From IMG/VR virus record IMGVR_UViG_3300044617_001078, positions 1 to 44,947 of that record: DNA of 44,947 bases. One strand, written 5' to 3'. Below the pieces are notes generated by a model. The model did no database searches. It was given only the letters and a program-made list of their open reading frames with translations, and was not told the DNA's origin. Below, in pieces: positions 10,135-29,727 of the stretch. This DNA comes from a virus. Position 1 is the stretch's first letter. Each line of letters starts with the position of its first letter. Made by a program: the position numbers and the translations under genes.

Positions 10135-13100
10135 ATGGCAATCGCACCCCCGCAGGACGACATTCTCATCCGTGTGCAGCAACGGCTCGCACAGCGGGGT
10201 ATCACCGGCGCCGAAGCCGCCTCCATCGTCGCGAAGATCGAGGCCAAACTTGGCCGCGTGTCCGGTCCCGGCGTGGGGATGCAGCGGGCGGTGGGCCAGC
10301 CGTCCATTCCGACCCCGCGCGGGGAGCCCGTTGATCCGCGGTATGCAAAGTTCCAGGTCGATCCGAACGACCCCCTCGTCGCTCGCGGGCTCAAGCCTCG
10401 CCAGATCGCGGCAACCCCCGAGGAAATCGCGGCCAACGGAACGCGGTTCGCCGCGCCGACCACTCAGCCGGTCGAGAGCATGGGGATGTTCAGAAGCGGC
10501 GCGAAAGCCCTCTACGGCGGGCTCGAGGACGCGGGCGACTTCGGCATCACGGCCGACATGCTCGCCGCCGACAACCGTGTGACTCCGGAGGTCGGCAACA
10601 GGTTCGCCCAGATTCAGGCCCAGAAGCGTTCCCGGCCCATGTCCGAGGGTGCCGCGGCATACGCGCAGGCGTCCCAGGGCGGGGCCATGTCGCTCCTCAG
10701 CTTCGCGGCGGATCGACCGGGCGCGTTCTTGCAGGGCGCAATCGACCAGAACCTCCAAAGCCTCGGCAGCACGGCCGCCAGCATCGTCGGGGCTCCTCTC
10801 GCCGGAGCGCTTGCCCCCACCCTCATGGGCTCGGGTTCGGGTTTGGCGGAAGCCTCCAACGAACTCGCCGCGGCACTCGAGGCCGAGGGCGTCGATGTGA
10901 CCGACGGCGGTGCGGTGACGCGGGCCATGAACACCCCCGATGTTCGGGCGCGGGTCAGGGATCGCGTGCTCACCAAGTCAACCACGGTGGGCGCGGCAGA
11001 CTTCGCCACCATGGGCATCGCCTCCCGCATCCCCGGCGGCAAGACGTTCATGGGAAAGCTCGCAAGCCAGGTAGCCCAGACCGGCGTGGAGGGCGTGGGA
11101 GGCATGGCGGGCGAGGCGTTGAGCCAAGTCGCCAGCGGTCAGGAACTCCAGACCGGCGACATCCTCAGCGAAGGCATCGGGGAACTCCTGCCCGGCTCGG
11201 CGCAGGTCGCGGCGCTCGGTGCTCGGCGACTCCTCAACCCGACCACTCCGCCCCCGTCGTCCCCGGCGTCGCCCACCCCCGGCGGTCCTGCACCGGGGGG
11301 TGTGGGGGGGAACGCGCGACCCCCCTCCCCCCCCTCTACCCCTCCCGTCGATCCGATGGACGCGGTTGCCGACAGCCTTGACGAGCGTTTCAAGATGAAG
11401 CCGTCGGTGCTGAATCCGTTGGCGCCTCCGCCGGCGGTCAACCCCGGTCCTGTACCTTCACAGACCGGGCGGGACAATGGGATCAACACCGTCAGGCCAG
11501 GAAGCCGTGAGGAAGTGACGGCGCGCATGGACCAGAAGATCGCTTCTGGAATGGACCGCGAATCCGCGTTCAAGGCCGTGCAAGAGGAGTTGACCGCCGA
11601 AGCAGAAGATCGCCTAAGCGTGGACGGCGAAATCCTTGTGGATGAGTACGGCGACGAGTGGCAGGTGGAGCACTTCAGAACCGAGAGGGGCGGTCCAAAG
11701 AACAAGAGAGGACTCGCCAAGCTCACCAACGACAACGGCGAGCCAGTTCCACCAAACGAAAGGGGAACCATTCTTGGTGACGGCGCAATTGTGTTCGCTC
11801 GGTCACTCAGGAGAAGGTCAGAGGTAGGCGGAAGCCCCGGCACGCCGTCGGGGGTGGATACCACCTCCCAAGCCCCCCGCGAGCCGTGGCAGATGACAAG
11901 GGTGGAGTGGGACAATCTGATAGCCGAGCACCCGTTTGTCAACGACCCTTCCAACTCCAAGAACGATATTGCGTACTTTATTGCAAAACAGAGGACGAAA
12001 CACGCCAACAGTGTGGGCATTGCGTATCACGGAGGCAAGCCCGTTCCCCCCGAAGTGCTCGCGGGGTACGGGTATACCCCCAAACCTCCGGCGAAACCGG
12101 ACAGTTCGAGCGAGCAGCAGGCCCCCGAGGCCGACCCATACGAGCAGGCGACACAGAACCTCCTCCAGCAGCGTGCCGAGCGCAAGAAGGCCCGAGCCGC
12201 GGCCGACGAGCTTGCGGTGATCGACGGTGCGCTCGCCAACATCAAGGAGCAGCGGGCGGCGCGACGCGCGGGGCGGATCGGGACCAACGCCTACACCCCC
12301 GTCCCGGCCAAACAACCCCCCACGTTTGAGCAGCAGTTTGAGGCCAACATCCTCGAGCAGCGGAACGCCCGGCGCGCCGCTCGAGCCCAGCAGGCCCCGG
12401 CGGCCGCGCCCGCGCAGGCCATGGAGTCGGTTCTGCGGGATGAAACCCCCGACGAAATCGCCATTCGGGCGATCATGCAGCAGCGGGCAGCGGCAAAGAC
12501 CAAGCGGCAGGTCCGCGACATCTTCCGCGCCCGCGTCGACGCCCCCGTGAGCGAAGATCAGGCCGCGGCGTTCAGGGCGGAGGCGGAGGCCCGGCGCGAG
12601 GGGATCCGCGGGCAGCGGACGTCGCCCCCGCTCTCTCGCACCGAGCAGCAGTACCAGGACCAGAACGCGCAGCGGGTCGCACGGATCCGCGCCCAGCGCG
12701 AAGATCCCAACTTCACGGACAGGCTTGGGACGGAGCAGTGGCCGGCGGCGGGACAGATTCGCGGGGCACGCGGGCAGTGGCCGGCGGGGAACCAGCCCAG
12801 GAGCGAAGGTCAGCAGCAGGGCGCGGCCAGTCGATCCCAGCCGGGGGGCAGTGTCCCGGCAGCCACCAACCAGGAGCGCGCAAATGGCGAAGAAGCCCCG
12901 CAAGCCGAAAGGCTGCTGAAAGACGAAGAGGACGTTTTTGAGCGACTGGGCCGTGAGTCCGACGAACGCAAGAAGCAGATGCGCGAGTTTCTTGACGCCA
13001 ATCGCGGCAAGCCGTTCACGGTTCACAGCACCGAGTACGGAGCCACCATCGCGTTCACTCCGTCGGCCAAGCACCCCGGCGAGTGGCAGGTCACTTGGTT

Positions 13101-16100
13101 CTCCCCGCGTGACGGGAAGCCGTCGGGAGACACCAGATATGCGACATGGGACGCGGCGGTCGCTGCTGAAGGCCGCTTTGGGCAGTTGAAGCCCGAAACG
13201 GCCAAGGTGATTGGCACCGCTGCCCCCGCTGAATCCTCTGCACCGCAGGGGACGGGGGCGGTGGGTGCTGAGACTGACGCGGATGCGATGCTCGAGAAGA
13301 TCAAGGAGCAACTTGGGCGAGGATCGGGCCGCCAGTCTGCCGACATGATCCGCGCGTTTCAAGAACTCGGATCAACCCTTGTCCCAGGCGTGCGATTGCA
13401 GGACGCCGAAGAAGTCGGACGCATGTACGCCATGCTGGACGACGGCACGGTGACGCTCGCGGAATACACCAACTACATCGACGACCTTCGCAAGAGCGGA
13501 AAAGTGGCGAAGACTGCGCCCGCGAAGTCCAAGCCGCTCGCCAAATCCCAGATCATCGACCAGTTGGAGCCCAAACTCCCCGACAGCACGCGAGCTGATG
13601 TACGCGCCACAAGCAATGTGCGGCGAGATGAACTCAGGAAGAAGACGCGCGACCAACTCCTGAAAATGCTGGAGGATCGCACCAAGATCCGGCAGGACAT
13701 CGAAGCCACCAAGCCGCTCATGGATGCGTGGTATGCGAGTCTGATGCAGACCGCTGAGGGCGCCGGATCTTCGTGGCAATTGGCGCTCAAGGCGGTGGCC
13801 GACAAGCACGGTGTTGGTATGCCCCCGCCGGCGACTCGCGGAGAAATGGCCGCATCGCTCGCCTCCAAACTGGCACAGAAGGGCGTAGACGCGCCTAAAC
13901 TCATCCCGCAGGAGAACGCCGATGGCACTGATCGAGGTACAACCGGGGGTGTGGGAGCTGCGCGGGGCGACGGGCAAGGCCCTGGGCAGGGGCAGCAAGG
14001 AACAAATGCTCAAGCAACGCGAGGAAATGCGGCTCCAGCGGGAGGCGTTCGAGAAGAACCGCCAGCGGCCCAAGCCCAAGTAGGCGGGTCGTCCGATTCC
14101 CAGATCCGCGCCGCAAAGCGGCAGGCAGAGGAAGACAAGAAGAAGCAGCGGAGAGCGGAGGCCGCCAAGAAGGCCGCAGAAACCAGGGCGTTCAACAATC
14201 GCAATCCAAGCCACTTCACCCGCGGCCACATCGCCGAGCAGATCATGCGCCTCGCCCGCTCGCTTCCCGACACGGATACGCAGTATGGCGTACTCGGGAA
14301 CGCAGAGGATTCCCAGGCACCCGGCGACTACATCAGCTTCTCGTTTACCGGGAAGCTCCCAACAGAGGTGTTGCAAGCAATCGACGCCGAGCCGCACCTC
14401 AGAACGCTTCTCCGCGTGGTTCCCAGTGGTGGGCTTGGGGCTGACTGGATGGGGCACCTAGGCGTTGACGAGTACGTTCGGCAACTCCGCCTCACGTTCT
14501 ACGAAGGGCACGGGAAAGACAACTACGGGCTTGTGGTCGCCCGTCGCAAACTCGAACACTGGCGGGGGGGAAATGCGGAGGCCGATTTCCTGCTGTGGGC
14601 TCTCGACCGCATCGAGAACAGCCCCGACATGCGGCCCGATTGGGAGATGGTTCCGGCGGCAGACATCACGCCCGGATCGACGCTCAAGATCATCGGGGAG
14701 GACTTCGACGCCACTGCCGCCAAGTACGGTGAAATCGTGCTTTCCGACGGCATCGAGTTCCCGTTGCAAGTGCTCGAGGCGTATGGCGTTCCCGTTGACA
14801 AGGGCACCATGAAGAAGGGCACGCAGGAGCCCGCGCCTAAGCCCGAAACTCCCGACTTCGGCATTGAGGACGCGGCCGATCCGCTCGCGGCCGTCAGCGA
14901 CCGCATCGAGAGCACCGAAACCATCACGATGGACGACGGCGAAACCGCAACCATCTACAAGCTCGCCGACGGGTTTGAGGTTGTCGATTCCCCGGAGGGC
15001 GTGGAACTCCGCCGGCGGATCGGTCCAGGCGTCCAGAGGCTTGGAACCTACTCCTCGGTCGAGGACGCGATTGGATCGGTCGCGCCCAAGATTGCACCCG
15101 AGAATGAATGGCTGCCTCCCAACGACGACGGCGAGGAGTTCCGCGCATGGGCGATGTCGCTCGTCACGGGTTTGGAGAGCCGGGTCGATATGGTCAGGAC
15201 GGCCACCAACGAGGCCGACGAAAGAGGCGTGTTCTTCACGGTGAGCAACAAAGCCGGAGGCCAAAGCACCTACGGCGTCCGCGCGTTCAAGGGTCGCGCG
15301 TTCGTGGTCGAGAGCACCCGCGGCTACATGACCAAGGGGGCCGCGCATGTGCTTTCGGAGCACCCCAACGCCCGGACGGCACTCGTCGAGGCGATCACGC
15401 TCGAGGACGCCCCCAAGCCCGCCAAGGCCGAGCCCGCACCCGTCAGCACGGATGCGGCCACCAAGATCCTCGCCGACAAGGGCATCATCGTCACCAAGAC
15501 GACCACCAAGAACGGCACCCCCGTTTGGGAGTTGACCGGGCAGACGTTTGACCACAAGGACGCGATACGATCCGCGGGCGGGCGCTGGTACGGCCCCAAG
15601 AAAGCATGGAGCGTTTACGATGAGCAGGCAATCACCAAACTCGCCGGGACCATCGGAGGAGGCAGTACGGTCGATGGTGGCGTCGCTGGGCAAGCGGCCG
15701 GGGTTGTTGCAGACAGCGATGACGATTTGGCGAGACAGCGAGCCCGAGAGAGACTCGACGCAACTCCCGACGAACGAGGAACTGGCGCGGATTATGCTCG
15801 CACGGTCACGCCGGGTACTGCCGCGCTGATCCGCAAGGGCGAAGCGTTCGGCATCCCGACCGACGTGGCGACCGAACAGATCGAAGACATCGGCATGGCA
15901 ATGGCTGCGCACCGCCAGGGCCGCAAACTGTTCATCATCGGCAACGACGCGGGCAGCGGCAAGACGTTCGTTCTCGGCGGCATCATCCGTGAGATGCGGG
16001 CGAAGTTTCCCGCGGTCGTCTACGTCACGATGAACCAAGACCTCATCGAGCAGATCAAGCGGAACCTCAAGGACTACGACATCGGCGGCGTCACGTTTGC

Positions 16101-19100
16101 GACCTACTCCGACCTCTCTTCCGGCAAGGTGGAAAGCACACCCGGCCAGCTCCTCATCCTCGACGAAGCGCACAACATCAAGAACACGGAGAGCGCCCGA
16201 GGGAAGAACGGGAAGAAGGCGGTCGCCAACGCTGGATTCACGGTGTTCGCCAGCGCGACCCCATACGAGAACCCCGTTCAGGCGGAGTACCTTGCGCCGA
16301 CTGGCGTGTTCGACGAGGCGGGCGGTCACACCGAATGGGCCAAAATCTACGGCGCGGCCGTGCGCAAGTGGAAGGACAGCGAGGGGACGCACGAAGAGGT
16401 GTATTGGGTTTCGACCAAGGACAGCACGAAAGACGCATTGCAGGCAAAGGGGTGGCTGGAGCGCAAAGGCGTGTTCACGCAGCGCCGCATCCGGTTGGAC
16501 CCCGCGATGGTTCAGGCCCGTTTCCGCCGAGTGCCTGTGGAACAGAAATGGCTCGATCTGTTCAATCGCGTTCTGGCCGTGTACGACGACGCACTGAGCG
16601 AGTGGAAAGACCCGCTCACCGGGCGGTCGCGTGATCCCAGGGTGGCCGCGATGGTGGCGATGCACCGCGAAAACGCACTCAAGCGGATTCTGGAGGCCGC
16701 AAAGGTCAACGCCGCAATCGACCGGGCCAAGGAAGAACTGGCCGCCGGCCGCAAGGTCGCCATGTTCGTCGAAACCAAGTCCGAGCGGGAAATCGGGCGA
16801 TACCGCAAGTCCAACGCAAAACCCAACTCCGAGAGTTACACGTTCCCCCAGATGCAGGCGATCATGCGCGAGTGGGAACAGGACCGCGCCGCCGACCGGG
16901 CCGCGGGCGACCGTGGGCAGCCGCCCCCGTTCAGCCCCGCGATCCTGACCATTGCAGCCGCCATGCACGACGCGGGGATCGACGAAACCCTGCCGAGCGT
17001 TGTGGACGAGATTGAGGCCGCGTTTGGCAAGGACGCCGCCCTCTACACCGGCAGCGTCACCCCCGCCAAGGCCGCGCAGAACCGAGAGGCGTGGAGGCTC
17101 GGGAAGTTCAAGGTGCTCATCATCACGATGGACAAGGGCGGCACGGGGTTGTCGCTGCATGACACCGTGGGCGACCAGCCGACGACGCAGATCAACGTCA
17201 ATATGCCATGGACCGCGACCAAGGTGAAGCAGGTGAGCGCGAGAACCGGGCGGTACGGGCTCAAGAGCAAGGTCGTGATGGAGTGGCTGTTTTCCGCAGA
17301 CATCCCGTTCGAGAAGCGACTCGCCCGCCGGGTGGGTGGCCGCATCCGCGACATGGGCGCGACCGTCAGCGGCATCAACATCGCCAGCGCGACGAAACTG
17401 GCCGACTTCGATTTCAAGGCCGACGAGGACATCGGCGACATGGCTCTCGGCGTGGGCACGGAGCCCGAGGCCGACACCAACGGCACCGAGGAGCAGTATC
17501 GGCAGGCCAACCGGCTCGAGGCCGCGGAACGCCGCGCCGACGACACTTCGGGCGACTTCTTCCAGACCCCGCATCCCATCGCGTTGTTCATGGCGCGGGT
17601 GGCGGGCATCACGAGCGGGACCAAGGTTCTCGAGCCCTCCGCCGGCATGGGCCGCATTGTGCGGTACATCCCCGCCGGCGCGAGCCTGACCATGATCGAG
17701 CAGCACCCCGGCCGCGTGCGGAAACTGGAGGCGATGAACCGAGGCAAGGTGGTGAACACCGATTTCGTTCAGTGGGCCAAGGACAACAAGGACACTCAGG
17801 ACGTGGTTCTGATGAATCCCCCGTTCAGCCGCATCGCGGGCGAGGGGTGGCAGGACGTTTCGCACGTCATGGCCGCGTGGGACACGCTCCGCGAGGGCGG
17901 CCGGCTCGTCGCCGTGATGTCGGTGGGATTCACGTTCCACCAGGACCAGCAGAGCGCGGAGTTCCGAGAGTGGGTCGAGAGCACCGGCGCGACCGTGTTC
18001 AAGCTCCCCGAACGGGCGTTCAAGAACAGCGGCACAGGCGTGCGGACGGTCCTTCTGATTGCCGACAAGCGGACGGGAGACTACGCCGACGCGGGCGAGT
18101 ACCAAGTCGATTCGATGGATGAACTGCCGTCGCTGGAGGACGAGGTTCCGTCGAGAGCGTTGGACCGCGACGAGAAGCCGAATGAGCCTGCGCCGACCGC
18201 ACCCCCCAAGTTCTCCGACAGTGAAGGCGTCTTCGGCCAGAAGACCGAGAGCATCACGGGGACGCAGCGCGGCATGTTCGGCGACATCTCGCCCGATCCC
18301 ATGCCCGAGATGCAGGATGAATACCCCGGCATCCGACGCGGCGAGTCCGTCGAGCAGTACCGCAAGCGAATGGGGACGACCGACACGCCGGATATGTTCG
18401 GCGGTCCCTCCTCCTCCGGCGGCGACCCCAAGCGGCCCCAGCGTGCCCCATCCAACATGGCCGACCGCGCCATCGGAGCACTCGAGCGGATCGCCGCCGA
18501 CGCCGAGGCCCGGATGCAGGCCCGCGCCAAGAAGCGGGGCACGCGCCTCTACTCCACCCCCATCCCCAACCCCCGCGACGTGATCGACACCGCGGCATGG
18601 GCCGCAAGCAAGGCGCTCGTCGCCCAGATCAAGGGGGCCAGGGCAATCGGCAAGTTCATCACCGACCAGGTTGCCGCGCGTTGGCCAGATGCGAAGTTTG
18701 ACCCCGCCGTCCTGCGCCGCACCGCCCGCCGGTTCATGGACGGGGCCAAGACGCCGCAGGACGTGTACGCCCGTTGGCAGGCTGCCCGCAACAAGGACGA
18801 CGCCGCACGCACCAAGACCGCCGCAGGGGCCGCCGTTGACCCCAAGGCCGTCAAGGAGGCCGCAGCCGTTGGGACCGCTCAGAGGCCCGACGTGGCCGCC
18901 CGGATCGTCGCCGAAGTCCGCAAGTCGTTCCGCGCGGGCAAGGAGGCGGGGCGCGTGCAGGCGCTCGCGGCGCTCAAGCCTGTCATCACCAAAGCCAAGC
19001 AGGCCGCCATTCGGGCCGAGCAGATGCGCAAGATCGAGCAGCGCGGTGGCAAGGACGCCGCCGCTGCTGCGACCCAGGCCGCCAAGGTGCAGGCCGAAAC

Positions 19101-21615
19101 CGAGGCCGGAATCCGCGATGAGGCCGTCAGGCTGGTGCAGTCCATCCCCGGAGTGGGCCGCCGCTACCTCAAGTCCGTCAGCACCGCCAAGGGGATGCGC
19201 GACCTCCAGCGGATTCTCCACCGGCTTCGCAAGGATCTTGCCAAATCGGTCGCCCGCGACTCCCGCCGGCGTGCTCAGGCCATGGCAAAGATGTTCAAGA
19301 AGCTCAACGACGACCGCCTCGCTCTCGCCCGTAAGGCCCTGTACGACATCGAGGAGGCTTGGAAGGCGATCAAGTCCAAGGACACCGGGACTATCCGGGC
19401 CGAAGAACTGGCCCAAGCCATGCGGGAGTCGGCCGAGCAGATCAAGGCTCTCATCACCGAGCAGCGCGACGAGGACAAGGTTCGGGTTCTCGGCAAGATC
19501 ATCCTGATGAGCGAGCACCGGGACGACATGGTTGAGCGGATCACGAAGCAGAAGGAACTGCCCCAGACCGAGAAGGTAGGCGCCGACCGCACGCCGGGCG
19601 GGGTTCGCCTGTTCATGCGGAAATACGCCAACTTCCGGACCCTCATGCAGATCCTTGATGGGCAGTTTGACGAAAACGGGATCTTCGCCCGTGCCCACCG
19701 CGCCATGGCTGCGCGTCGGACGCTGGAGCTTGGGAAGAACCAGGAGTTCATCGACCGGGCCGAGGCGATCGTCAAGGCGAACGGGTACAAGTCTTGGGCC
19801 GACTTCACCAAGCGGACGACCGGCTCGCTCGGGGACGCCTCCGTCGATTTCGTGAACATCGAGCTTGGCGACCGCAAGCGAATCCCCGTTGGGCTCGCCA
19901 TGGCCCTCTACGCCCAAGACCCCGAAACCAAGTCCCTCATGCACGAGGGGCAGGTGTTCAAGTTCCACCGCAACGACCTCAAGGGCTTCACGGTTGACGA
20001 TTACAAACTCGCGGAACTGGAGGCCGCACTGACCCCGGCGCAGAAGACCATCGCCGTTGCGATCAACCGCCTGCGGTCGGAGATGCAGTACGACCGGGCC
20101 GATGCGGTTTACAAGGACATCACCGGCAATCGCTTGGTGAAAGTCCCGGACCACTACCCCCGCCAGCGAATCCTCGACCAGATCGGAAACCCTGACACCG
20201 TGGACGTGGCCCGCGTGGCAATCGGAGAATGGGCGGTTCAGTCGCTTGAGAACTCGGGGTTCACCATCCAGCGCGTCAACTCCCGCGCGCCCTTGCTCCT
20301 CTCCGACTTCGCCGAAACCCAGGTGAGGGCGTTCCAGGGCACCGAGATGATGATTCAGCGGGCGCAGCTCGTCAAGTACCTCAAGGGAACGATCATGCAC
20401 CCGGATGTCATCAACCAGATCAACGCGCGGTATGGCACCGCGATGGTCAAACGGCTCGCCGGCGTCATCGCCGAATACTCCGGGCACACCCAGCCGGAAG
20501 CCGACCCGCTTGCCCGCCGTGCCGCCTCCAAGATCGCGCAGACTATGACGCAGACCAACCCCCTGACCTGGCTGCGCAACCTCTCAACGGTGTTCCGTCT
20601 TCCCCTTGCCCTTGTGGATGGGTCGGCCGTGGCGACCAGCGACGTGCTCGCGGCGATGCCCAAGGCGGCCGCCAGCATGAACAAGACCATGGGGCTTCTG
20701 CTCAAACACTCCCCGGATCTTCGCCACCGTTGGAGTCACGCCGGGGCCGCCATCTCCCTCATGCCCACCGGCGCCGCGCCCGACGCCGATTCGCATTTCG
20801 CCGACGCTAGCAAGGCCACCATGCGGCAACTCCTCCATGCGTTCAAGGGGCTCAAAACCGGCAACTTCACCGAGCGAGCGGGGCAGGCTGGGCGTGCGTA
20901 TGACGCCACCCTCGACGCGATCAAACTCGGCAACACCTTCGACGGCTATGCCGCCGCCGTCGCCTATCACGTCTTCCGGGCCAAGGCGCCCACCAACCTG
21001 AGCCCGGCCGCCCAAGACCGTTGGGCCGCACGGCGCGCCTCCGATGCGTTCATGCAGACCGCCAACACGAACGACCTCCTCAACGCGACCGAGTTCCAGA
21101 CCGAAGCGCGGCGGAGCATCACGGCCGCCCTGCTGCTGACGTTCACGTCTGACATCGCCAAAATGCAGAACCTCGCGTACCTCTCCGGCAAGCGGGGCGG
21201 GAAGTCCATGGGCGTCACCGCCGGCTCCATCGTCGCAAGCGTGGCGTGGTCCACGGCGATCCGCTACGTTGCCGCTGCGATTCTCGGCGACGACGCGGAG
21301 AAGCGGGACGAGGAGGCGGTTCAGTCTGTGATGGACGAGCTGTTGAGCCTGCTTCCCCTCGGCGTCAACGTCATCGCCCCGCTCGCCAAGTTCCTCACAA
21401 GCGGCTCGACGTACAGAGGCTCGGGGCTGCTGGATACGCCATTTACCTCGCTGGTCAAGCACTTCGAGGCGATCGTCGGGCAGATCCAGAGGGAAGACAC
21501 CAACGTCGCGGAAGTGGCATACCGCACGTTCCGGCTGGTGTTCGATCCCATCGGAAACCCCCTCGGCCCGATCAGCGGCATGGCACGGCGGGCGATCAAG
21601 AACTACGGAGAATGA
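10135..21615 (+). CDS. Giant polyvalent virion protein: SNF2-type helicase plus N6-adenine methyltransferase
   Basis: A 3,826-residue single frame. From the N-terminus: helical Gly/Ala region (to about 370); Pro-rich linker (about 374-412); Gln/Arg repeats (about 665-860); mixed domains; a DUF5710-like patch near 1803-1827 (AGGRW, KAW). A superfamily 2 helicase follows, with Walker A GSGKT at 1940-1944, DEAH at 2010-2013, and motifs V and VI at 2333-2342 and 2368-2375. The methyltransferase has a SAM motif at 2499-2506 (LEPSAGMG) and NPPF at 2561-2564. The C-terminal thousand residues are helical, Ala-rich, with hydrophobic helices near 3697-3717. Helicase-methyltransferase proteins of this kind (polyvalent proteins, DarB-like) are thought to enter with phage DNA and protect it from restriction. 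Promoter-like hairpin element upstream; last gene of the late block. Confidence 0.85.
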   Translation: MAIAPPQDDILIRVQQRLAQRGITGAEAASIVAKIEAKLGRVSGPGVGMQRAVGQPSIPTPRGEPVDPRYAKFQVDPNDPLVARGLKPRQIAATPEEIAANGTRFAAPTTQPVESMGMFRSGAKALYGGLEDAGDFGITADMLAADNRVTPEVGNRFAQIQAQKRSRPMSEGAAAYAQASQGGAMSLLSFAADRPGAFLQGAIDQNLQSLGSTAASIVGAPLAGALAPTLMGSGSGLAEASNELAAALEAEGVDVTDGGAVTRAMNTPDVRARVRDRVLTKSTTVGAADFATMGIASRIPGGKTFMGKLASQVAQTGVEGVGGMAGEALSQVASGQELQTGDILSEGIGELLPGSAQVAALGARRLLNPTTPPPSSPASPTPGGPAPGGVGGNARPPSPPSTPPVDPMDAVADSLDERFKMKPSVLNPLAPPPAVNPGPVPSQTGRDNGINTVRPGSREEVTARMDQKIASGMDRESAFKAVQEELTAEAEDRLSVDGEILVDEYGDEWQVEHFRTERGGPKNKRGLAKLTNDNGEPVPPNERGTILGDGAIVFARSLRRRSEVGGSPGTPSGVDTTSQAPREPWQMTRVEWDNLIAEHPFVNDPSNSKNDIAYFIAKQRTKHANSVGIAYHGGKPVPPEVLAGYGYTPKPPAKPDSSSEQQAPEADPYEQATQNLLQQRAERKKARAAADELAVIDGALANIKEQRAARRAGRIGTNAYTPVPAKQPPTFEQQFEANILEQRNARRAARAQQAPAAAPAQAMESVLRDETPDEIAIRAIMQQRAAAKTKRQVRDIFRARVDAPVSEDQAAAFRAEAEARREGIRGQRTSPPLSRTEQQYQDQNAQRVARIRAQREDPNFTDRLGTEQWPAAGQIRGARGQWPAGNQPRSEGQQQGAASRSQPGGSVPAATNQERANGEEAPQAERLLKDEEDVFERLGRESDERKKQMREFLDANRGKPFTVHSTEYGATIAFTPSAKHPGEWQVTWFSPRDGKPSGDTRYATWDAAVAAEGRFGQLKPETAKVIGTAAPAESSAPQGTGAVGAETDADAMLEKIKEQLGRGSGRQSADMIRAFQELGSTLVPGVRLQDAEEVGRMYAMLDDGTVTLAEYTNYIDDLRKSGKVAKTAPAKSKPLAKSQIIDQLEPKLPDSTRADVRATSNVRRDELRKKTRDQLLKMLEDRTKIRQDIEATKPLMDAWYASLMQTAEGAGSSWQLALKAVADKHGVGMPPPATRGEMAASLASKLAQKGVDAPKLIPQENADGTDRGTTGGVGAARGDGQGPGQGQQGTNAQATRGNAAPAGGVREEPPAAQAQVGGSSDSQIRAAKRQAEEDKKKQRRAEAAKKAAETRAFNNRNPSHFTRGHIAEQIMRLARSLPDTDTQYGVLGNAEDSQAPGDYISFSFTGKLPTEVLQAIDAEPHLRTLLRVVPSGGLGADWMGHLGVDEYVRQLRLTFYEGHGKDNYGLVVARRKLEHWRGGNAEADFLLWALDRIENSPDMRPDWEMVPAADITPGSTLKIIGEDFDATAAKYGEIVLSDGIEFPLQVLEAYGVPVDKGTMKKGTQEPAPKPETPDFGIEDAADPLAAVSDRIESTETITMDDGETATIYKLADGFEVVDSPEGVELRRRIGPGVQRLGTYSSVEDAIGSVAPKIAPENEWLPPNDDGEEFRAWAMSLVTGLESRVDMVRTATNEADERGVFFTVSNKAGGQSTYGVRAFKGRAFVVESTRGYMTKGAAHVLSEHPNARTALVEAITLEDAPKPAKAEPAPVSTDAATKILADKGIIVTKTTTKNGTPVWELTGQTFDHKDAIRSAGGRWYGPKKAWSVYDEQAITKLAGTIGGGSTVDGGVAGQAAGVVADSDDDLARQRARERLDATPDERGTGADYARTVTPGTAALIRKGEAFGIPTDVATEQIEDIGMAMAAHRQGRKLFIIGNDAGSGKTFVLGGIIREMRAKFPAVVYVTMNQDLIEQIKRNLKDYDIGGVTFATYSDLSSGKVESTPGQLLILDEAHNIKNTESARGKNGKKAVANAGFTVFASATPYENPVQAEYLAPTGVFDEAGGHTEWAKIYGAAVRKWKDSEGTHEEVYWVSTKDSTKDALQAKGWLERKGVFTQRRIRLDPAMVQARFRRVPVEQKWLDLFNRVLAVYDDALSEWKDPLTGRSRDPRVAAMVAMHRENALKRILEAAKVNAAIDRAKEELAAGRKVAMFVETKSEREIGRYRKSNAKPNSESYTFPQMQAIMREWEQDRAADRAAGDRGQPPPFSPAILTIAAAMHDAGIDETLPSVVDEIEAAFGKDAALYTGSVTPAKAAQNREAWRLGKFKVLIITMDKGGTGLSLHDTVGDQPTTQINVNMPWTATKVKQVSARTGRYGLKSKVVMEWLFSADIPFEKRLARRVGGRIRDMGATVSGINIASATKLADFDFKADEDIGDMALGVGTEPEADTNGTEEQYRQANRLEAAERRADDTSGDFFQTPHPIALFMARVAGITSGTKVLEPSAGMGRIVRYIPAGASLTMIEQHPGRVRKLEAMNRGKVVNTDFVQWAKDNKDTQDVVLMNPPFSRIAGEGWQDVSHVMAAWDTLREGGRLVAVMSVGFTFHQDQQSAEFREWVESTGATVFKLPERAFKNSGTGVRTVLLIADKRTGDYADAGEYQVDSMDELPSLEDEVPSRALDRDEKPNEPAPTAPPKFSDSEGVFGQKTESITGTQRGMFGDISPDPMPEMQDEYPGIRRGESVEQYRKRMGTTDTPDMFGGPSSSGGDPKRPQRAPSNMADRAIGALERIAADAEARMQARAKKRGTRLYSTPIPNPRDVIDTAAWAASKALVAQIKGARAIGKFITDQVAARWPDAKFDPAVLRRTARRFMDGAKTPQDVYARWQAARNKDDAARTKTAAGAAVDPKAVKEAAAVGTAQRPDVAARIVAEVRKSFRAGKEAGRVQALAALKPVITKAKQAAIRAEQMRKIEQRGGKDAAAAATQAAKVQAETEAGIRDEAVRLVQSIPGVGRRYLKSVSTAKGMRDLQRILHRLRKDLAKSVARDSRRRAQAMAKMFKKLNDDRLALARKALYDIEEAWKAIKSKDTGTIRAEELAQAMRESAEQIKALITEQRDEDKVRVLGKIILMSEHRDDMVERITKQKELPQTEKVGADRTPGGVRLFMRKYANFRTLMQILDGQFDENGIFARAHRAMAARRTLELGKNQEFIDRAEAIVKANGYKSWADFTKRTTGSLGDASVDFVNIELGDRKRIPVGLAMALYAQDPETKSLMHEGQVFKFHRNDLKGFTVDDYKLAELEAALTPAQKTIAVAINRLRSEMQYDRADAVYKDITGNRLVKVPDHYPRQRILDQIGNPDTVDVARVAIGEWAVQSLENSGFTIQRVNSRAPLLLSDFAETQVRAFQGTEMMIQRAQLVKYLKGTIMHPDVINQINARYGTAMVKRLAGVIAEYSGHTQPEADPLARRAASKIAQTMTQTNPLTWLRNLSTVFRLPLALVDGSAVATSDVLAAMPKAAASMNKTMGLLLKHSPDLRHRWSHAGAAISLMPTGAAPDADSHFADASKATMRQLLHAFKGLKTGNFTERAGQAGRAYDATLDAIKLGNTFDGYAAAVAYHVFRAKAPTNLSPAAQDRWAARRASDAFMQTANTNDLLNATEFQTEARRSITAALLLTFTSDIAKMQNLAYLSGKRGGKSMGVTAGSIVASVAWSTAIRYVAAAILGDDAEKRDEEAVQSVMDELLSLLPLGVNVIAPLAKFLTSGSTYRGSGLLDTPFTSLVKHFEAIVGQIQREDTNVAEVAYRTFRLVFDPIGNPLGPISGMARRAIKNYGE

Positions 21616-24231: not shown

Positions 24232-25146
24232 ATGGCTATTACAGAACTGCAAAGGACGAAGAGACAGCAAACGCTCGGAGCATCGGACATTCCGACCATC
24301 TTTGGGCTCAACCCGTGGAAGACGCCCGCGGATCTGTGGCTTGAGAAGACCGGCCGCGTCGAGGCTCCCGACGCAGGCGAAGCCGCTGAAATCGGTGACG
24401 CGCTCGAAGCGGGCATCAAGCCCCTCGCGGAACGCCGCTTGGGCTTCAAGCTCGTCAAGCCGACCGGGACGTTTGTTCACGAGAACGGCGTGATGTCCGC
24501 AAACGTGGACCTGATGGTGAACAAGGCCCAGCGCGGCAGCGCGATCTGTGAAATCAAGACCACCGGCAAGGCTGACGAGTGGGAGAACGATTCGATTCCG
24601 TCCCGCGTGCTGGTGCAGGTCGCCGCCCAAATGGCGTGCGCCGGTTCGGTGCAGGCCCACATCGCGGCACTGGTCGCCCGGTTCGGGCTCTCGATGGAGA
24701 TGCGGCTGGTCGAGCGCAACCAGGAGGTTGCCGAGTTGATCGAGGCGATCGAGACTCGGGCGTGCGAGTGGTGGCGGAAGCACATCGAGGGCGACACCCC
24801 GCCGGAAGGCGTTGCGTCGCTGGACTACCTGAGCAAAAGGGTCAGGGCCGCCGGCAAGGTGGTAAAGGTGCCCGTCGTGCTCGTCACGCAGTACCAGGCT
24901 GCAAAGGACGTGGCGAAGGCGGCCGAAGAGGCAGCGGACGCGGCAAAGGCGGCACTGGTTCAGGCTCTCGGAGACGGCGACGCGGGCGAGGCTGAGGACG
25001 GGAGCGTGGTGAAATACACCAACGTGGTGACGACCAGACTGGACAGCACGGCGCTCAAGGCCGCGCACCCGGTTCTGTTCGCGGAGTTCAGCAAAGACTC
25101 GGCCTATCGCCGGTTGACGGTGAAGACCGCGAAGGGAGGCGTGTGA
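24232..25146 (+). CDS. YqaJ-type (lambda exonuclease-like) viral recombinase
   Basis: A 304-residue protein starting at ATG 24232 with GAGAAAGG 8-15 bases upstream. It matches the YqaJ viral recombinase family of PD-(D/E)xK nucleases: S-D at 18-19, Glu59 in the GDALE patch, Asp93 (NVDLM) and the catalytic EIK at 107-109. Its job is 5'-3' resection of double-stranded DNA ends, giving 3' single strands for the annealing protein encoded next. The C-terminal 80 residues are Ala-rich and helical. Stop overlaps the recT start. Confident family call. Confidence 0.9.
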   Translation: MAITELQRTKRQQTLGASDIPTIFGLNPWKTPADLWLEKTGRVEAPDAGEAAEIGDALEAGIKPLAERRLGFKLVKPTGTFVHENGVMSANVDLMVNKAQRGSAICEIKTTGKADEWENDSIPSRVLVQVAAQMACAGSVQAHIAALVARFGLSMEMRLVERNQEVAELIEAIETRACEWWRKHIEGDTPPEGVASLDYLSKRVRAAGKVVKVPVVLVTQYQAAKDVAKAAEEAADAAKAALVQALGDGDAGEAEDGSVVKYTNVVTTRLDSTALKAAHPVLFAEFSKDSAYRRLTVKTAKGGV

Positions 25147-26141
25147 TGACGACGACAGACACAACCATCGTTCCGCTCAATGGCGAAGGTCACGAGATTC
25201 AGGCCGTCAAGGGGCCGCCGATGACCGTGGCGTCACTGCTCAAGGGCGGGAAGCTCAAGGAGTTGCAGCAGTTGGCGGGCGCGGCGATGAGCGCGGAGCG
25301 GCTTATCAAGATGTTCGCCATGGCAGCGAGCCGAAACCCCAAGCTCATGCACTGCACTCCGATCAGCGTGCTCGACGCGATGACCAAGTGCGCCGAGTTG
25401 AACCTGATGCCTGGTACGCTCGGCAGCGTCTACCTCATCCCCTACGAGAACCGCAAGAACGGCACTTGTGAGTGCCAGTTCATCCTCGGCTACCGCGGCA
25501 TGATGACCCTCGCCCGGCGCTCGGGTGAAATCTCGACCATCACGGCCGATGTTGTTCGCAACGGGGACGAGTTCGAGTACGAGCACGGGATTGATTCCAA
25601 GTTCCGGCACAAGCCCAAGGGGATCGACGGCGCGAGCCCGACGCACGCTTGGGCCATGGCGAAGTTCAAGGACGGTTCACACCAGTTGGTGGTGATGTCC
25701 AAGTCCGAAATCGAGTCGATCCGGCGGCGTTCTCGAGCGGGCGATTACGGCCCGTGGAAGACCGACACCGAAGAGATGTGGAAGAAGACTGCTCTCCGCC
25801 GGCTCTGCAAGTACCTCCCGCTTGAGCCCGATGTCGAGGCCGCAATCACGGGCGTGGACCGGGCGGAGATGGAGTTCGACATGCCGAGCACGGGCACGGG
25901 TGACGACGAGCAGCCGCAGGACGAGGCTAAGCCCGCGACGACGACCCAGGCCGCCAAGCTCGCGGCGCAGATCAAGCAATCCACTGTGGTGGTGGACACT
26001 CCGGCGGCTCAGGAACAGGCGGCGGCGCAGGGTGGCGGGAGTCCTGATCCCGTCGCGCCGCCGCCTGCCGCTGGGGAACAGCAATCCCTCCTCCCGCAAG
26101 AGACTCGCGTGACCAACGGCGTCCGTCGCCGCGGCAACTGA
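25146..26141 (+). CDS. recT: RecT-family single-strand annealing protein
   Basis: A 331-residue protein. The ATG at 25146 (TGATG overlap) has AGGGAGG 6 bases upstream; a GTG at 25143 is only 3 bases from it. The N-terminal half carries RecT features: a helical lead with LKELQQLAG, then the conserved central fold with LNLMPGTLGSVYLIPY and FILGYRGMM. The last 80 residues are Gln/Ala/Pro-rich and disordered. It pairs with the exonuclease before it as a RecET-type module for repairing and concatenating phage DNA. A strong terminator-like hairpin follows at 26199. Confidence 0.92.
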   Translation: MTTTDTTIVPLNGEGHEIQAVKGPPMTVASLLKGGKLKELQQLAGAAMSAERLIKMFAMAASRNPKLMHCTPISVLDAMTKCAELNLMPGTLGSVYLIPYENRKNGTCECQFILGYRGMMTLARRSGEISTITADVVRNGDEFEYEHGIDSKFRHKPKGIDGASPTHAWAMAKFKDGSHQLVVMSKSEIESIRRRSRAGDYGPWKTDTEEMWKKTALRRLCKYLPLEPDVEAAITGVDRAEMEFDMPSTGTGDDEQPQDEAKPATTTQAAKLAAQIKQSTVVVDTPAAQEQAAAQGGGSPDPVAPPPAAGEQQSLLPQETRVTNGVRRRGN

Positions 26142-26694: not shown

Positions 26695-26735
26695 TGGTCC
26701 TCGCTCTCCGCAGAGATGCGGCGAGCGGGTTTCCC

Positions 26736-26810
26736 CTTGGTGAAGCTCAAAGGAACGAGCGCCTGAGGTGATACCTCAGGAGGGTGCGGGTTCGAGCCCC
26801 GTCACCTCGG
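26736..26810 (+). tRNA. tRNA-like gene, anticodon-loop reading GAT, nonstandard
   Basis: Folds as a tRNA: D-arm GCTC/GAGC (26745-26748, 26757-26760) with a GG in the loop, variable AGGGT, T-arm GCGGG-TTCGAGC-CCCGT (26786-26802), acceptor ends at 26809. The acceptor stem (26736-26742) has two mismatches. The anticodon stem CCTGA/TCAGG encloses a 9-base loop, GGTGATACC, in which T-GAT-A sits as U33, anticodon GAU (Ile) and A37. The oversize loop could pair GGT with ACC. It may be a decayed or specialised tRNA; a scanner score would decide. Confidence 0.45.
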
Positions 26811-26814
26811 GTTT

Positions 26815-26919
26815 GGTGCGGTAGCGCAGTGGCAAGCGAGCCGCCACAACCGGGCCGAGTTAGGCCAGTGCGTCCCGGTGATACGGCGGAGGTCGTGGGT
26901 TCGAGTCCCACCCGCACCT
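26815..26919 (+). tRNA. tRNA-like gene with a 32-base insertion in the anticodon loop
   Basis: All outer arms are good: acceptor GGTGCGG/CCGCACC (26815-26821, 26912-26918), D-arm with GCGC and GG, anticodon stem CCGCC/GGCGG (26841-26845, 26885-26889), variable AGGTC, T-arm GTGGG-TTCGAGT-CCCAC. Between the two anticodon strands are 39 bases; removing the first 32 leaves a GTGATAC loop, U33 with anticodon GAU, identical to the tRNA-like gene 4 bases upstream. The inserted segment contains an ACCGGG/CCCGGT hairpin. Either a small intron-like insertion, a tRNA fusion, or a decayed gene. Confidence 0.5.
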
Positions 26920-26980
26920 TTGGCACACGAGAGCCCCCGCATCCGGGACACCGGACCAAGGGGGATTGCAGGAGGCACGC

Positions 26981-27853
26981 ATGTACGCGATCAAGAACTG
27001 GAACGCGATCTTTGAGAACAACCGCTCGCGCACCTTCGACGAGCCCAAGTACGTCAACTGGCCCGTGCGACGCGACTCCGAGGGCTTCGCGAGCCTCATG
27101 CGGGATGCGAAGGGCATGGCCGCGTTCGGTGTCTTCGGCGCCCTGGTGCAGTGGATCGGGCGCCAGCCGGTTCGGAATCGTCGCCACGGTGTTCTCGCCG
27201 ACGACAAGGGACCGATGACGCCCGAACGCTTCGCCGTCAGGATGGGCGCACCAATCCGCGACGTGCGGGCGGCGTGGGATCGTTTGGTGTCAATCGGGTG
27301 GCTCATCACCGTCGATGCGGCGTCACTTGACTGTCACTCGACTGACACCGAAGTGACGCCCGACTGCCACCCAACTGACACCGTGCTGCCACCCAAGTGC
27401 TACGGAGCGGAGCGGAGCGGAGCGGAGAGGAGAGGAGCGGATAGGAGCGGAGGGCAGAACGACGCTGGCGGCGTCGGTGGGGGGAGCCCGGAAAGCCACT
27501 CGCTTGGACACCCGCCCGCCCGCCCGCCGAAACCCCCGCCCGCAGCCGTGGAGGCCGTCAGGGACGCCCGGAGCGTTCGCGACGCACTCGCCGCCCTCCA
27601 CATCGACGGGAAGGCCCTGGGCGATCTGGCGGCCTCGGAAACGCTGACGCTGGACGTGCTGAGGGCGACGGTGGACGAAATCGTGAACAGGCCCGGCGTC
27701 CGCAACCCGAAACGGCTGTTGGTGTCGGTTCTGTGCGAGCGGCATGGCGTGAAGATCGAGAAGGGGGCGAAGTACCGCATCGGCTCCGAGGTGTCCGGGG
27801 TGGTCGCGCAGTTTGAGGCGGTGCGGCGCTCGAAGATGGGGGGTGGGGCATGA
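26981..27853 (+). CDS. Replication initiator-like protein (lambda O-type layout)
   Basis: A 290-residue protein, ATG 26981 with GGAGG 5-9 bases upstream. The N-terminal 115 residues look like a winged-helix DNA-binding domain (LMRDAKGMAAFGVFGAL, then RDVRAAWDRLVSIGWL). A low-complexity linker at about residues 115-190 carries the DNA repeats described below. The C-terminal 100 residues are helical and could contact a helicase or loader. Phage initiators such as lambda O have the origin iterons inside the gene, between the DNA-binding and C-terminal domains; the same layout is seen here. Next gene overlaps by ATGA. Family not confirmed. Confidence 0.6.
   Translation: MYAIKNWNAIFENNRSRTFDEPKYVNWPVRRDSEGFASLMRDAKGMAAFGVFGALVQWIGRQPVRNRRHGVLADDKGPMTPERFAVRMGAPIRDVRAAWDRLVSIGWLITVDAASLDCHSTDTEVTPDCHPTDTVLPPKCYGAERSGAERRGADRSGGQNDAGGVGGGSPESHSLGHPPARPPKPPPAAVEAVRDARSVRDALAALHIDGKALGDLAASETLTLDVLRATVDEIVNRPGVRNPKRLLVSVLCERHGVKIEKGAKYRIGSEVSGVVAQFEAVRRSKMGGGA
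27318..27405. repeat. 11-bp iteron array inside the initiator-like gene (candidate origin)
   Basis: Six tandem 11-bp units begin at 27329, 27340, 27351, 27362, 27373 and 27384, consensus RACTGNCACCS, with degenerate units on both sides (27318, 27395). A period of 11 bp, about one helical turn, is not a multiple of three, so it is not just an amino acid repeat. Iteron arrays with this spacing bind initiators on one DNA face. Confidence 0.65.
27404..27453 (+). repeat. GGAGC pentamer-type purine tract beside the iterons
   Basis: GGAGC and close variants (GGAGA, GGATA) run for about 50 bases directly after the iteron array. The + strand is nearly all purine apart from the C of each unit. It encodes an Arg/Gly/Ser/Glu linker of the initiator-like protein. 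It could be slippage-prone or form unusual DNA near an origin. Confidence 0.6.
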
Positions 27854-28287
27854 TGACCTCCGCGGTATTTCGTGACCGGGCGACCCCGGCGATGTGGGCG
27901 AAGGTGTTCGCGGCGGCCAAGGTTCACCCGTTCGAGGCGCAGCGCGACCTGTACCGCGAATACGTTGACTCGGCGGCGTGGGACGGCCGGCGTCACGAGG
28001 AGATTGCGAAGGCCGGAGGCGAGTGCTCCGAGTGCAGGAACAGGGCAACCCCTGGTATCCCGTTGCAGGTTCATCACCTGTCGTACGAGCGCCTTGGGGC
28101 GGAGTTGCCGACGGATCTGGTCGTGTTGTGCCGCCTGTGCCACGAGTGCAAGCACGGGCGGAGCCAAATCGCCCGCGTCGTTGAAGCGGTGTTCGGCCGG
28201 GAAGACCCGGAACGCGAGCGCCGGCGGGAAGAGAACAAGCGGCGGTGTGGGCACTACCGCGACCGCGGGCGTGGAGGTGTCGCATGA
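27850..28287 (+). CDS. HNH endonuclease-like protein
   Basis: A 145-residue protein, ATG 27850 in an ATGA overlap (ATG 27853 also possible). It shows the zinc-HNH layout: CxxC at residues 59-62, the catalytic HH at 75-76 (VHHLSY), and CxxCH at 94-98 (LCRLCH), ending in a very basic tail. HNH proteins nick or cut DNA, and in phages some assist packaging while others are homing-like. Position between the initiator and a methyltransferase-like gene suggests DNA processing. Domain clear, role not. Confidence 0.75.
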   Translation: MMTSAVFRDRATPAMWAKVFAAAKVHPFEAQRDLYREYVDSAAWDGRRHEEIAKAGGECSECRNRATPGIPLQVHHLSYERLGAELPTDLVVLCRLCHECKHGRSQIARVVEAVFGREDPERERRREENKRRCGHYRDRGRGGVA

Positions 28288-28880: not shown

Positions 28881-29203
28881 GCCGCACCCCACCCCCCATC
28901 GGCAGCCTGTGGAGCGACGTGGCCCGCGCGACCGACCCCGTGACCTCTCACGCGGCGGGCGTCCAAGTGACCCAGGACGAGACGCGAGCGAAGCAGGCCC
29001 GCGAAGTCGCCGAAGCGGTCCAGGAGACACCGGGGCACACGTCGGCCGAGCTGGCTGGGATTCACGGGCTCGACCGCTACGCCGTCGCTCGGAGGCTCCC
29101 GGAAGTGGAGCGGGCGGGCTCGGTGCGGCGCGGGGCGGCGAAGCACTGCACCGTGGCGGGTCGGGCGGCTATGACGTGGTGGCCGGTGGAGGTGTCACCA
29201 TGA
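28877..29203 (+). CDS. Small winged-helix DNA-binding protein
   Basis: A 108-residue protein, ATGA overlap at 28877. Residues 40-95 read as a winged helix (TSAELAGIHGLDRYAVARRLPEV then a basic wing). Its first 17 bases are identical to those of the preceding gene, which looks like a local duplication of the start region. It is probably a transcription or replication accessory factor. Family unnamed. Confidence 0.6.
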   Translation: MSRTPPPIGSLWSDVARATDPVTSHAAGVQVTQDETRAKQAREVAEAVQETPGHTSAELAGIHGLDRYAVARRLPEVERAGSVRRGAAKHCTVAGRAAMTWWPVEVSP

Positions 29204-29727
29204 CCATCCTCGCCTTCGACCCCTCCACAACCTGCACCGGCTGGGCGGTCCTCGGTGACGCCGGCGATGATGGGAAGTTCCTCGGCGCCGGGATGATCCG
29301 GCCCGACAAGTTCGACAACCTGACCGACCGGCTCCTCGACATGGCCGAGGCGGTACGGGAGCGGGTGCGAGTCGCCGGCGCGGATGTCGTCGTCGTCGAA
29401 ACCCCCGCGGCAACGGGCAGGGCTCGAGCGGCGCAGGGCTTCAAGGGCACGCCCCTGACCATCCCGATCTACGGGGCAGCGGTCGGCGCGGCAATCGTCG
29501 CGTGCGGGAGCACGGGCAAGGGCGTGAAGGTCTGCGGTGTGGCGTCCGACGAGTGGACCAAGCACCGGGTTCCGACCGGCCGCGACCCACACAAGGCGAT
29601 GCGCGTGGAGTACGTCAAGCGGCTGTACGGGATCGAAGACCTGGGGCCGCGGTCCCTTGCCGGGAACGTCGCCGACGCCATTCTCATCGCGCGGTGGCGT
29701 CTGTGGCGAGAGAGGGGGCTTGTGTGA
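29200..29727 (+). CDS. RuvC-like Holliday junction resolvase
   Basis: A 175-residue protein of RNase H fold, ATG 29200 in an ATGA overlap. Acidic residues match the RuvC active site: Asp7 (LAFDPS), Glu67 (VVVETP), and Asp159 (GNVADAILIA) in the C-terminal helix, with a His at 131. RuvC-type enzymes cut four-way junctions; in phages they resolve branched DNA before packaging, which fits the RecET genes upstream. Next gene starts in a GTGA overlap. Confidence 0.85.
   Translation: MTILAFDPSTTCTGWAVLGDAGDDGKFLGAGMIRPDKFDNLTDRLLDMAEAVRERVRVAGADVVVVETPAATGRARAAQGFKGTPLTIPIYGAAVGAAIVACGSTGKGVKVCGVASDEWTKHRVPTGRDPHKAMRVEYVKRLYGIEDLGPRSLAGNVADAILIARWRLWRERGLV

What the first reader, a model, noticed from the sequence alone, without database searches (positions are those of the whole stretch)
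27318..27405. Six-unit 11-bp iteron array inside an initiator-like gene: candidate replication origin
Six units (RACTGNCACCS) repeat every 11 bp from 27329 to 27394, with decayed units on both flanks. A period of 11, one helical turn, is not a multiple of three, so selection acted on DNA, not on amino acids. The host gene has an N-terminal winged-helix-like domain and sits among replication and recombination genes. Lambda O has its iterons in the same place inside its gene. I know of no described 11-bp array like this in an initiator gene, but I cannot search.
Basis: partly seen in the sequence, partly recalled or inferred. Interest (0 to 1): 0.75.

Follow-up and report, generated by a model that had tools for sequence, protein, structure and literature searches.

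The report
Phage initiator gene containing its origin
An uncultured phage seems to keep its replication start site, a row of 11-letter DNA repeats followed by a 5-letter repeat tract, inside the gene for the protein that probably binds it, and distant relatives keep the same layout even where the letters differ.

Summary
The array is real. It is the strongest 11-bp periodicity in the window and does not arise in resampled sequence. It survives a control that keeps the protein and shuffles synonymous codons, so the DNA itself is patterned. The host gene (26981-27853) is an undescribed phage protein with a confidently modelled winged-helix N-terminal domain, a disordered linker written by the array, and a helical C-terminal part. 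I built the family from the N-terminal domain. Among 13 relatives found by protein sequence alone, 9 carry a significant 11-bp array just behind that domain, although iteron sequence, iteron orientation and C-terminal domain all differ. Some relatives have C-terminal domains of known phage replication-initiation families. The best explanation is an initiator gene with its replication origin inside it. It works like lambda O, SPP1 gene 38 and plasmid pSK41 rep, but it belongs to no family I could test, has 11-bp iterons, and lacks an AT-rich unwinding element. Binding and origin activity are inferred. This is a new variant of a known kind.

The parts
26981..27853 (+). Initiator-like CDS, 290 aa (P0001); an in-frame TTG start at 26966 is also possible
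   Evidence: no Pfam, PHROG or NCBIfam hit for this protein
26981..27331 (+). N-terminal winged-helix domain (aa 1-117), presumed iteron-binding domain
   Evidence: AlphaFold mean pLDDT 90.9 for the domain alone; family alignments A4-A6
27318..27405 (+). 11-bp iteron array: six units 27329-27394 plus one decayed unit on each side; overlaps the codons of the disordered linker
27319..27328 (+). Left arm GGCGTCACTT of a perfect 10-bp inverted repeat (right arm AAGTGACGCC 27351-27360)
   Evidence: 8-mer inverted repeats: 3 seen, 0.58 expected, up to 5 in shuffles, so weak
27403..27452 (+). 5-bp-period, G-rich strand-asymmetric tract (GGAGC)n, candidate strand-opening or single-strand-binding element
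   Evidence: TRF 10 copies, score 72; lag-5 p=0.002 against synonymous shuffles
27335..27560 (+). Region encoding the linker (aa 119-193), mostly low model confidence
   Evidence: pLDDT below 50 for aa 118-175 and 184-193
27566..27850 (+). C-terminal helical part (aa 196-290), presumed contact to helicase loader or primosome (inference)
   Evidence: helices 196-254 at pLDDT about 77-82; conserved in L002
24160..25146 (+). RecE-like / YqaJ exonuclease (context)
   Evidence: PF09588 3e-20, phrog_434 4e-64
25143..26141 (+). RecT-like annealing protein (context)
   Evidence: PF03837 2e-47, phrog_148 9e-70
27850..28287 (+). HNH endonuclease, directly downstream (context)
   Evidence: phrog_8048 3e-8
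29200..29727 (+). RuvC-like resolvase (context)
   Evidence: PF02075 1e-5, phrog_159 7e-15

Best explanation
The gene encodes the phage's replication initiator, and the array inside it is the initiator's binding site and the core of the phage origin. Copies of the N-terminal winged-helix domain bind the 11-bp iterons side by side on one face of the helix, probably in 22-bp pairs. The nucleoprotein complex opens the neighbouring 5-bp-period strand-asymmetric tract or captures one of its strands, and the C-terminal domain brings in the host or phage helicase loader. SHOWN here: the DNA-level array, its conserved place and period in the protein family, the adjacent tract, the domain layout, and the link of relatives to replication-initiation families. 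INFERRED: binding by the gene's own product, strand opening at the tract, helicase loading, and that replication starts here.
For: DNA-level selection: window 0/500 shuffles at lags 11 and 5; 11-bp signal in 12 of 16 non-redundant family genes; 22-bp in 7, 5-bp in 9, two of these outside the linker; lags unrelated to 5 or 11 that are not multiples of 3 mostly 0-3. Among 13 members found by protein only, 9 have it. Same place behind the N-terminal domain in nearly all members (nt about 325-445 of the gene). Iteron sequence, orientation and C-terminus vary: L080 GCGCACACCGC, L081 AAGTCACCGCC, L083 CTGCCG-based, L066 reversed GGTGCCAGCAG. Relatives L076/L079 carry replication-initiation C-termini (phrog_9474 1e-23 and 1e-21), and the N-terminus of L076 scores 3e-4 to Phage_rep_org_N. 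Best structural matches of the N-terminus are plasmid Rep initiators 4pql/5kbj/4pt7/4pta, Z 6.3-7.0, and 4pql, 5kbj and primosomal DnaB for the domain alone. pSK41 Rep has the same layout: 120-aa DNA-binding domain, linker encoded by the origin, C-terminal domain (PMC5703833).
Against: The window protein itself has no family hit. Structural Z-scores are below 8 and Foldseek E-values are not significant. The tract is GC-rich (about 69% GC), not an AT-rich unwinding element. GC skew has no inflection at 27.3 kb. No helicase loader gene directly follows. In viral contigs at large, TGNCACC triplets at 10 bp (45 stretches) and 12 bp (120 or more) are about as common as at 11 bp (57), so motif counts alone prove nothing. 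Four of the 16 non-redundant family genes do not reach p<=0.005 at lag 11 (L070, L077, L072, L076).
Confidence: 0.8

Rival explanations
1. The array is an operator inside the gene: the protein, or another phage regulator, binds it to control transcription of the early operon, and replication starts elsewhere.
For: 11-bp TGNCACC arrays also occur between genes in other phages (L007, L016, L024, L053). Tandem one-turn sites suit cooperative repressors.
Against: It lies about 340 bp inside the coding sequence in the linker of the gene, far from a promoter position, in an initiator-like gene and next to a conserved tract. Unrelated replication-initiation genes carry the same array internally (L012, L020, L028, L030).
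Confidence: 0.1
2. The repeat belongs to the protein: a low-complexity linker with an 11-residue repeat (DCHPTDTEVTP) that happens to look periodic at DNA level.
For: 11 bp x 3 gives an 11-residue pseudo-repeat visible in the protein.
Against: Synonymous shuffles that keep the protein lose the lag-11 signal (0/500 reach it). The same DNA core is read in three frames as CHP, TDT and VTP. Relatives spell the array with different residues.
Confidence: 0.03
3. Neutral repeat expansion by replication slippage, without function.
For: Units at both ends are decayed, and tracts of 5 bp resemble microsatellites.
Against: Slippage by 11 or 5 bp breaks the reading frame. Period and place persist at 25-35% protein identity with unrelated iteron sequences. 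Signals sit at 11/22 and 5/10, not at other lags.
Confidence: 0.05
4. A partition (centromere-like) site bound by a ribbon-helix-helix protein, as 11-bp repeats are in some plasmid par systems (from memory).
For: Period of 11 bp.
Against: No partition gene was recognised near the array among the genes scanned, and the site is inside the coding sequence of a winged-helix gene.
Confidence: 0.02

Closest known systems
Bacteriophage lambda O and ori-lambda (also Stx phages)
   Same: Iterons lie in the middle of the initiator gene, followed by an asymmetric A/purine-rich stretch (PMC7466680).
   Different: Lambda iterons are 18 bp at 20-24-bp spacing (lag 20 p=0.027, lag 23 p=0.003, no lag-11 signal). 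Its unwinding region is AT-rich, and gene P follows. No sequence relation was found.
RepA_N plasmid replicons (pSK41, pTZ2162 Rep)
   Same: About 120-aa winged-helix N-terminus, linker encoded by the origin, separate C-terminal domain (PMC5703833). They give the top structural matches of the N-terminal domain.
   Different: [quoted passage not shown] No RepA_N Pfam hit here. Structural match Z below 8.
Phage replisome organisers (Pfam PF09681; SPP1 gp38/oriL; TP901-1 Rep)
   Same: Phage initiators; oriL lies within SPP1 gene 38 (PMC6316719). One family relative scores 3e-4 to PF09681.
   Different: The window protein does not hit PF09681. TP901-1 rep shows no 11-bp array. SPP1 oriL uses an AT-rich unwinding element.
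Initiator genes found here in Verrucomicrobiota genomes by phrog_9474 and HTH_36
   Same: Several carry internal 22- or 11-bp arrays and 5-bp tracts.
   Different: Only 4 of 40 show lag 11 and 7 of 40 show lag 22. Most were picked through other N-terminal or C-terminal families.

Membership tests
Initiator gene with internal iteron origin (general kind) | Tandem DNA-level repeats inside the initiator coding sequence | tested here: met
Initiator gene with internal iteron origin (general kind) | Gene product is a replication initiator | tested here: inconclusive
   Family relatives carry replication-initiation C-termini; the window protein itself has no family hit
Initiator gene with internal iteron origin (general kind) | Initiator binds the repeats and replication starts there | not testable with these tools
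   needs EMSA, footprint, mini-replicon, marker-frequency data
Lambda O / ori-lambda | AT-rich unwinding region beside the iterons | tested here: not met
   tract 27403-27452 is about 69% GC
Lambda O / ori-lambda | 18-bp iterons at 20-24-bp spacing | tested here: not met
   11-bp contiguous units; lambda O tested alongside
Lambda O / ori-lambda | Helicase-loader gene (P) directly downstream | tested here: not met
   next gene is an HNH endonuclease
RepA_N plasmid initiators (PF06970) | RepA_N domain by sequence | tested here: not met
   no Pfam hit up to E=1 except a weak EutK_C
RepA_N plasmid initiators (PF06970) | RepA_N-like fold of the N-terminal domain | tested here: inconclusive
   top structural matches are RepA_N structures at Z 6.3-7.0; Foldseek E-values not significant
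Phage_rep_org_N (PF09681) | Domain match at or above the gathering score | tested here: not met
   P0001 no hit; relative L076 21.2 bits against a cut-off of 23.3

The most novel reading that the evidence does not exclude
The 5-bp-period, strand-asymmetric tract beside the iterons is a distinct kind of origin element: a periodic single-strand landing strip with a 5-nucleotide step, not an AT-rich melting region. It recurs with 11/22-bp iterons across several unrelated phage initiator families.
Probability: 0.25. Interest if true: 0.75.

Novelty: new variant of a known kind. Interest (0 to 1): 0.52.

Why it matters
If true, the origin of many uncultured temperate phages could be read straight from the linker of the initiator gene, because the DNA period betrays it even when the protein family is unknown. 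The family also offers a natural experiment: the same DNA-binding domain fold paired with many different 11-bp iterons. It poses a testable question about how a GC-rich, 5-bp-periodic tract can serve where textbook origins use AT-rich DNA.

Tried and rejected
(1) Counting TGNCACC triplets in viral contigs as proof that 11 bp is special: rejected, because 10-bp spacing gives 45 stretches and 12-bp at least 120, against 57 at 11 bp. The contexts differ (in-gene purine tract behind the array in 12/57 against 1/45 and 0/80), but most of those 12 are one close family. (2) Isolated phages: tblastn of P0001 and two relatives in 50,697 phage records gave nothing. (3) First genome scan with a two-member alignment: nothing. 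(4) GC skew as origin evidence: no inflection at the array. (5) Sequence search against solved structures: nothing usable. (6) Literature searches for 11-bp repeats in phage initiators and for 5-bp origin repeats: nothing described in the held library. Most subscription papers are not held, so this is no proof of novelty. (7) SPP1 record not held under the accession tried. (8) R-loop priming at the purine tract as the general mechanism: rejected, because L071 and L072 tracts are pyrimidine-rich and L067-L069 tracts are A/C-rich on the same strand.

Full report
WHAT IS THERE. The window is a 44,947-base virus record with integrase, RecE- and RecT-like genes, an HNH nuclease, a methyltransferase, a RuvC-like resolvase, terminase, portal and head genes, so a temperate tailed phage is likely. 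The finding lies in a 290-aa gene, 26981-27853. In 11-bp register the DNA reads six units, 27329-27394, with one decayed unit on each side. Units alternate slightly, so that period 22 scores best.

IS IT CHANCE OR PROTEIN? In 200 first-order resamplings of the window, the best lag-11 score never exceeded 36/66; the observed score is 44. The decisive control keeps the protein and redraws synonymous codons by the gene's own usage. None of 500 such genes reached the observed lag-11 or lag-5 score. The period is not a multiple of three, and the core TGNCACC is read as CHP, TDT and VTP in turn. Selection, or at least conservation, is on DNA.

THE FAMILY. P0001 has no hit in Pfam, PHROGs or NCBIfam and none in 50,697 phage records. 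One viral contig encodes a 69%-identical relative with the same array and tract. With that pair, a distant relative at 25% identity over the N-terminus turned up, and it too has its best 11-bp periodicity at the same place. A pattern scan added two more branches (L010 type, L018/L066), and profile scans added others, including Chthoniobacter flavus and Verrucomicrobia LW23. All share a domain of about 110 residues with W, FEN, R, P and G positions conserved.

THE ARRAY ACROSS THE FAMILY. Under the synonymous test (p<=0.005), 12 of 16 non-redundant genes show lag 11, 7 show lag 22, 9 show lag 5 (two of these, L077 and L083, far from the linker) and 5 show lag 10; the remaining lags are 0 to 3. 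Two of the 16 were found through the motif itself (L010, L066) and one is the window. Among the 13 found by protein alone, 9 have the lag-11 signal. The array sits just behind the N-terminal domain in nearly all. The iteron itself is not conserved: GCGCACACCGC in L080, AAGTCACCGCC in L081, CTGCCG-based units in L083, GTAG-based units in L067, and the reverse orientation in L066. L070 has 21-bp repeats instead, L077 has no clear array, and L071 has its strongest 11-bp block behind the tract. The tract is usually purine-rich, but A/C-rich in L067-L069, pyrimidine-rich in L071-L072 and G/T-rich in L080. What is shared is the 5-bp step, in many members, and strand asymmetry, not a base composition. 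In L010-type members the tract is polypurine without a 5-bp step.

FUNCTION. C-terminal parts of L076 and L079 belong to PHROG replication-initiation families (1e-23 and 1e-21); those of L066, L071 and L081 share another family (phrog_15768, unknown function); the window's is different again. The N-terminus with its array thus behaves as a module that is combined with different C-termini. The pPR9/pSK41 plasmid pair shows just such an exchange of N-terminus plus origin (PMC5703833). The N-terminal domain models at pLDDT 90.9, and its best structural matches are RepA_N plasmid initiators and primosomal DnaB. These are at Z below 8, which may be only a common arrangement, and Foldseek alone is not significant. 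In the viral structure library the second match is a putative replication protein of phage PhiPLPE at E 1.7e-3. The model shows an ordered domain, a disordered linker that coincides with array and tract, and a helical C-terminus. This is the layout of pSK41 Rep, whose linker is encoded by its origin and is dispensable as protein (PMC5703833).

MECHANISM, WITH STATUS. Shown: DNA-level array, its conservation by period and place, its association with a second periodic tract, and the initiator-like domain plan. Inferred: the domain binds the iterons one per helical turn, the complex opens or captures the tract, the C-terminus recruits the helicase loader, and replication starts here. GC skew neither supports nor refutes this.

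CONTROLS THAT LIMIT THE CLAIM. The motif triplet is not rarer at 10 or 12 bp than at 11 bp in a way that would single out 11 bp across viral contigs (45, 57 and at least 120 stretches). In 40 other initiator genes picked by family from Verrucomicrobiota, lag 22 was significant in 7, lag 5 in 7, lag 11 in 4 and lag 10 in 3, others 0-2. Internal arrays and 5-bp tracts are therefore found more widely in phage initiator genes, and the 11-bp form is the norm only in this family. Lambda O gives its known 20/23-bp spacing with the same test, and TP901-1 rep gives no 11-bp signal.

KNOWN OR NEW. An origin inside the initiator gene is textbook for lambda (PMC7466680), SPP1 (PMC6316719) and pSK41 (PMC5703833). 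I found no description of this protein family, of contiguous 11-bp iterons in such a gene, or of the 5-bp tract in the held library, which lacks most subscription papers. I therefore rate it a new variant of a known kind.

Noticed in passing
window 26735-26811 and 26815-26919: A tRNA-Ile(GAT) gene is followed at once by a second tRNA-Ile-like fold with a 32-nt insertion in its anticodon arm, just upstream of the initiator gene. Neither reaches the Rfam gathering score.
   Followed up: partly
window 10135-21615: A single 3826-aa open frame with helicase motifs (ResIII, Helicase_C) takes up a quarter of the record.
   Followed up: no
L007:2393, L016, L024, L053, L022 (viral contigs): Tandem 11-bp TGNCACC arrays between genes in unrelated phages; purpose unknown.
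   Followed up: no
L012, L020, L028, L030, L041, L062: Other replication-initiation or DnaD-like loader genes, unrelated to the window family, carry TGNCACC-type 11-bp arrays inside, some in reverse orientation.
   Followed up: partly
L070:3348-3440: A family member in which the array is replaced by four perfect 21-bp repeats GACGTTTCGGGAAAATCCCCC.
   Followed up: no
L256, L258, L282 (Verrucomicrobiota initiator genes): 5-bp-period tracts also occur in initiator genes picked through other families.
   Followed up: partly
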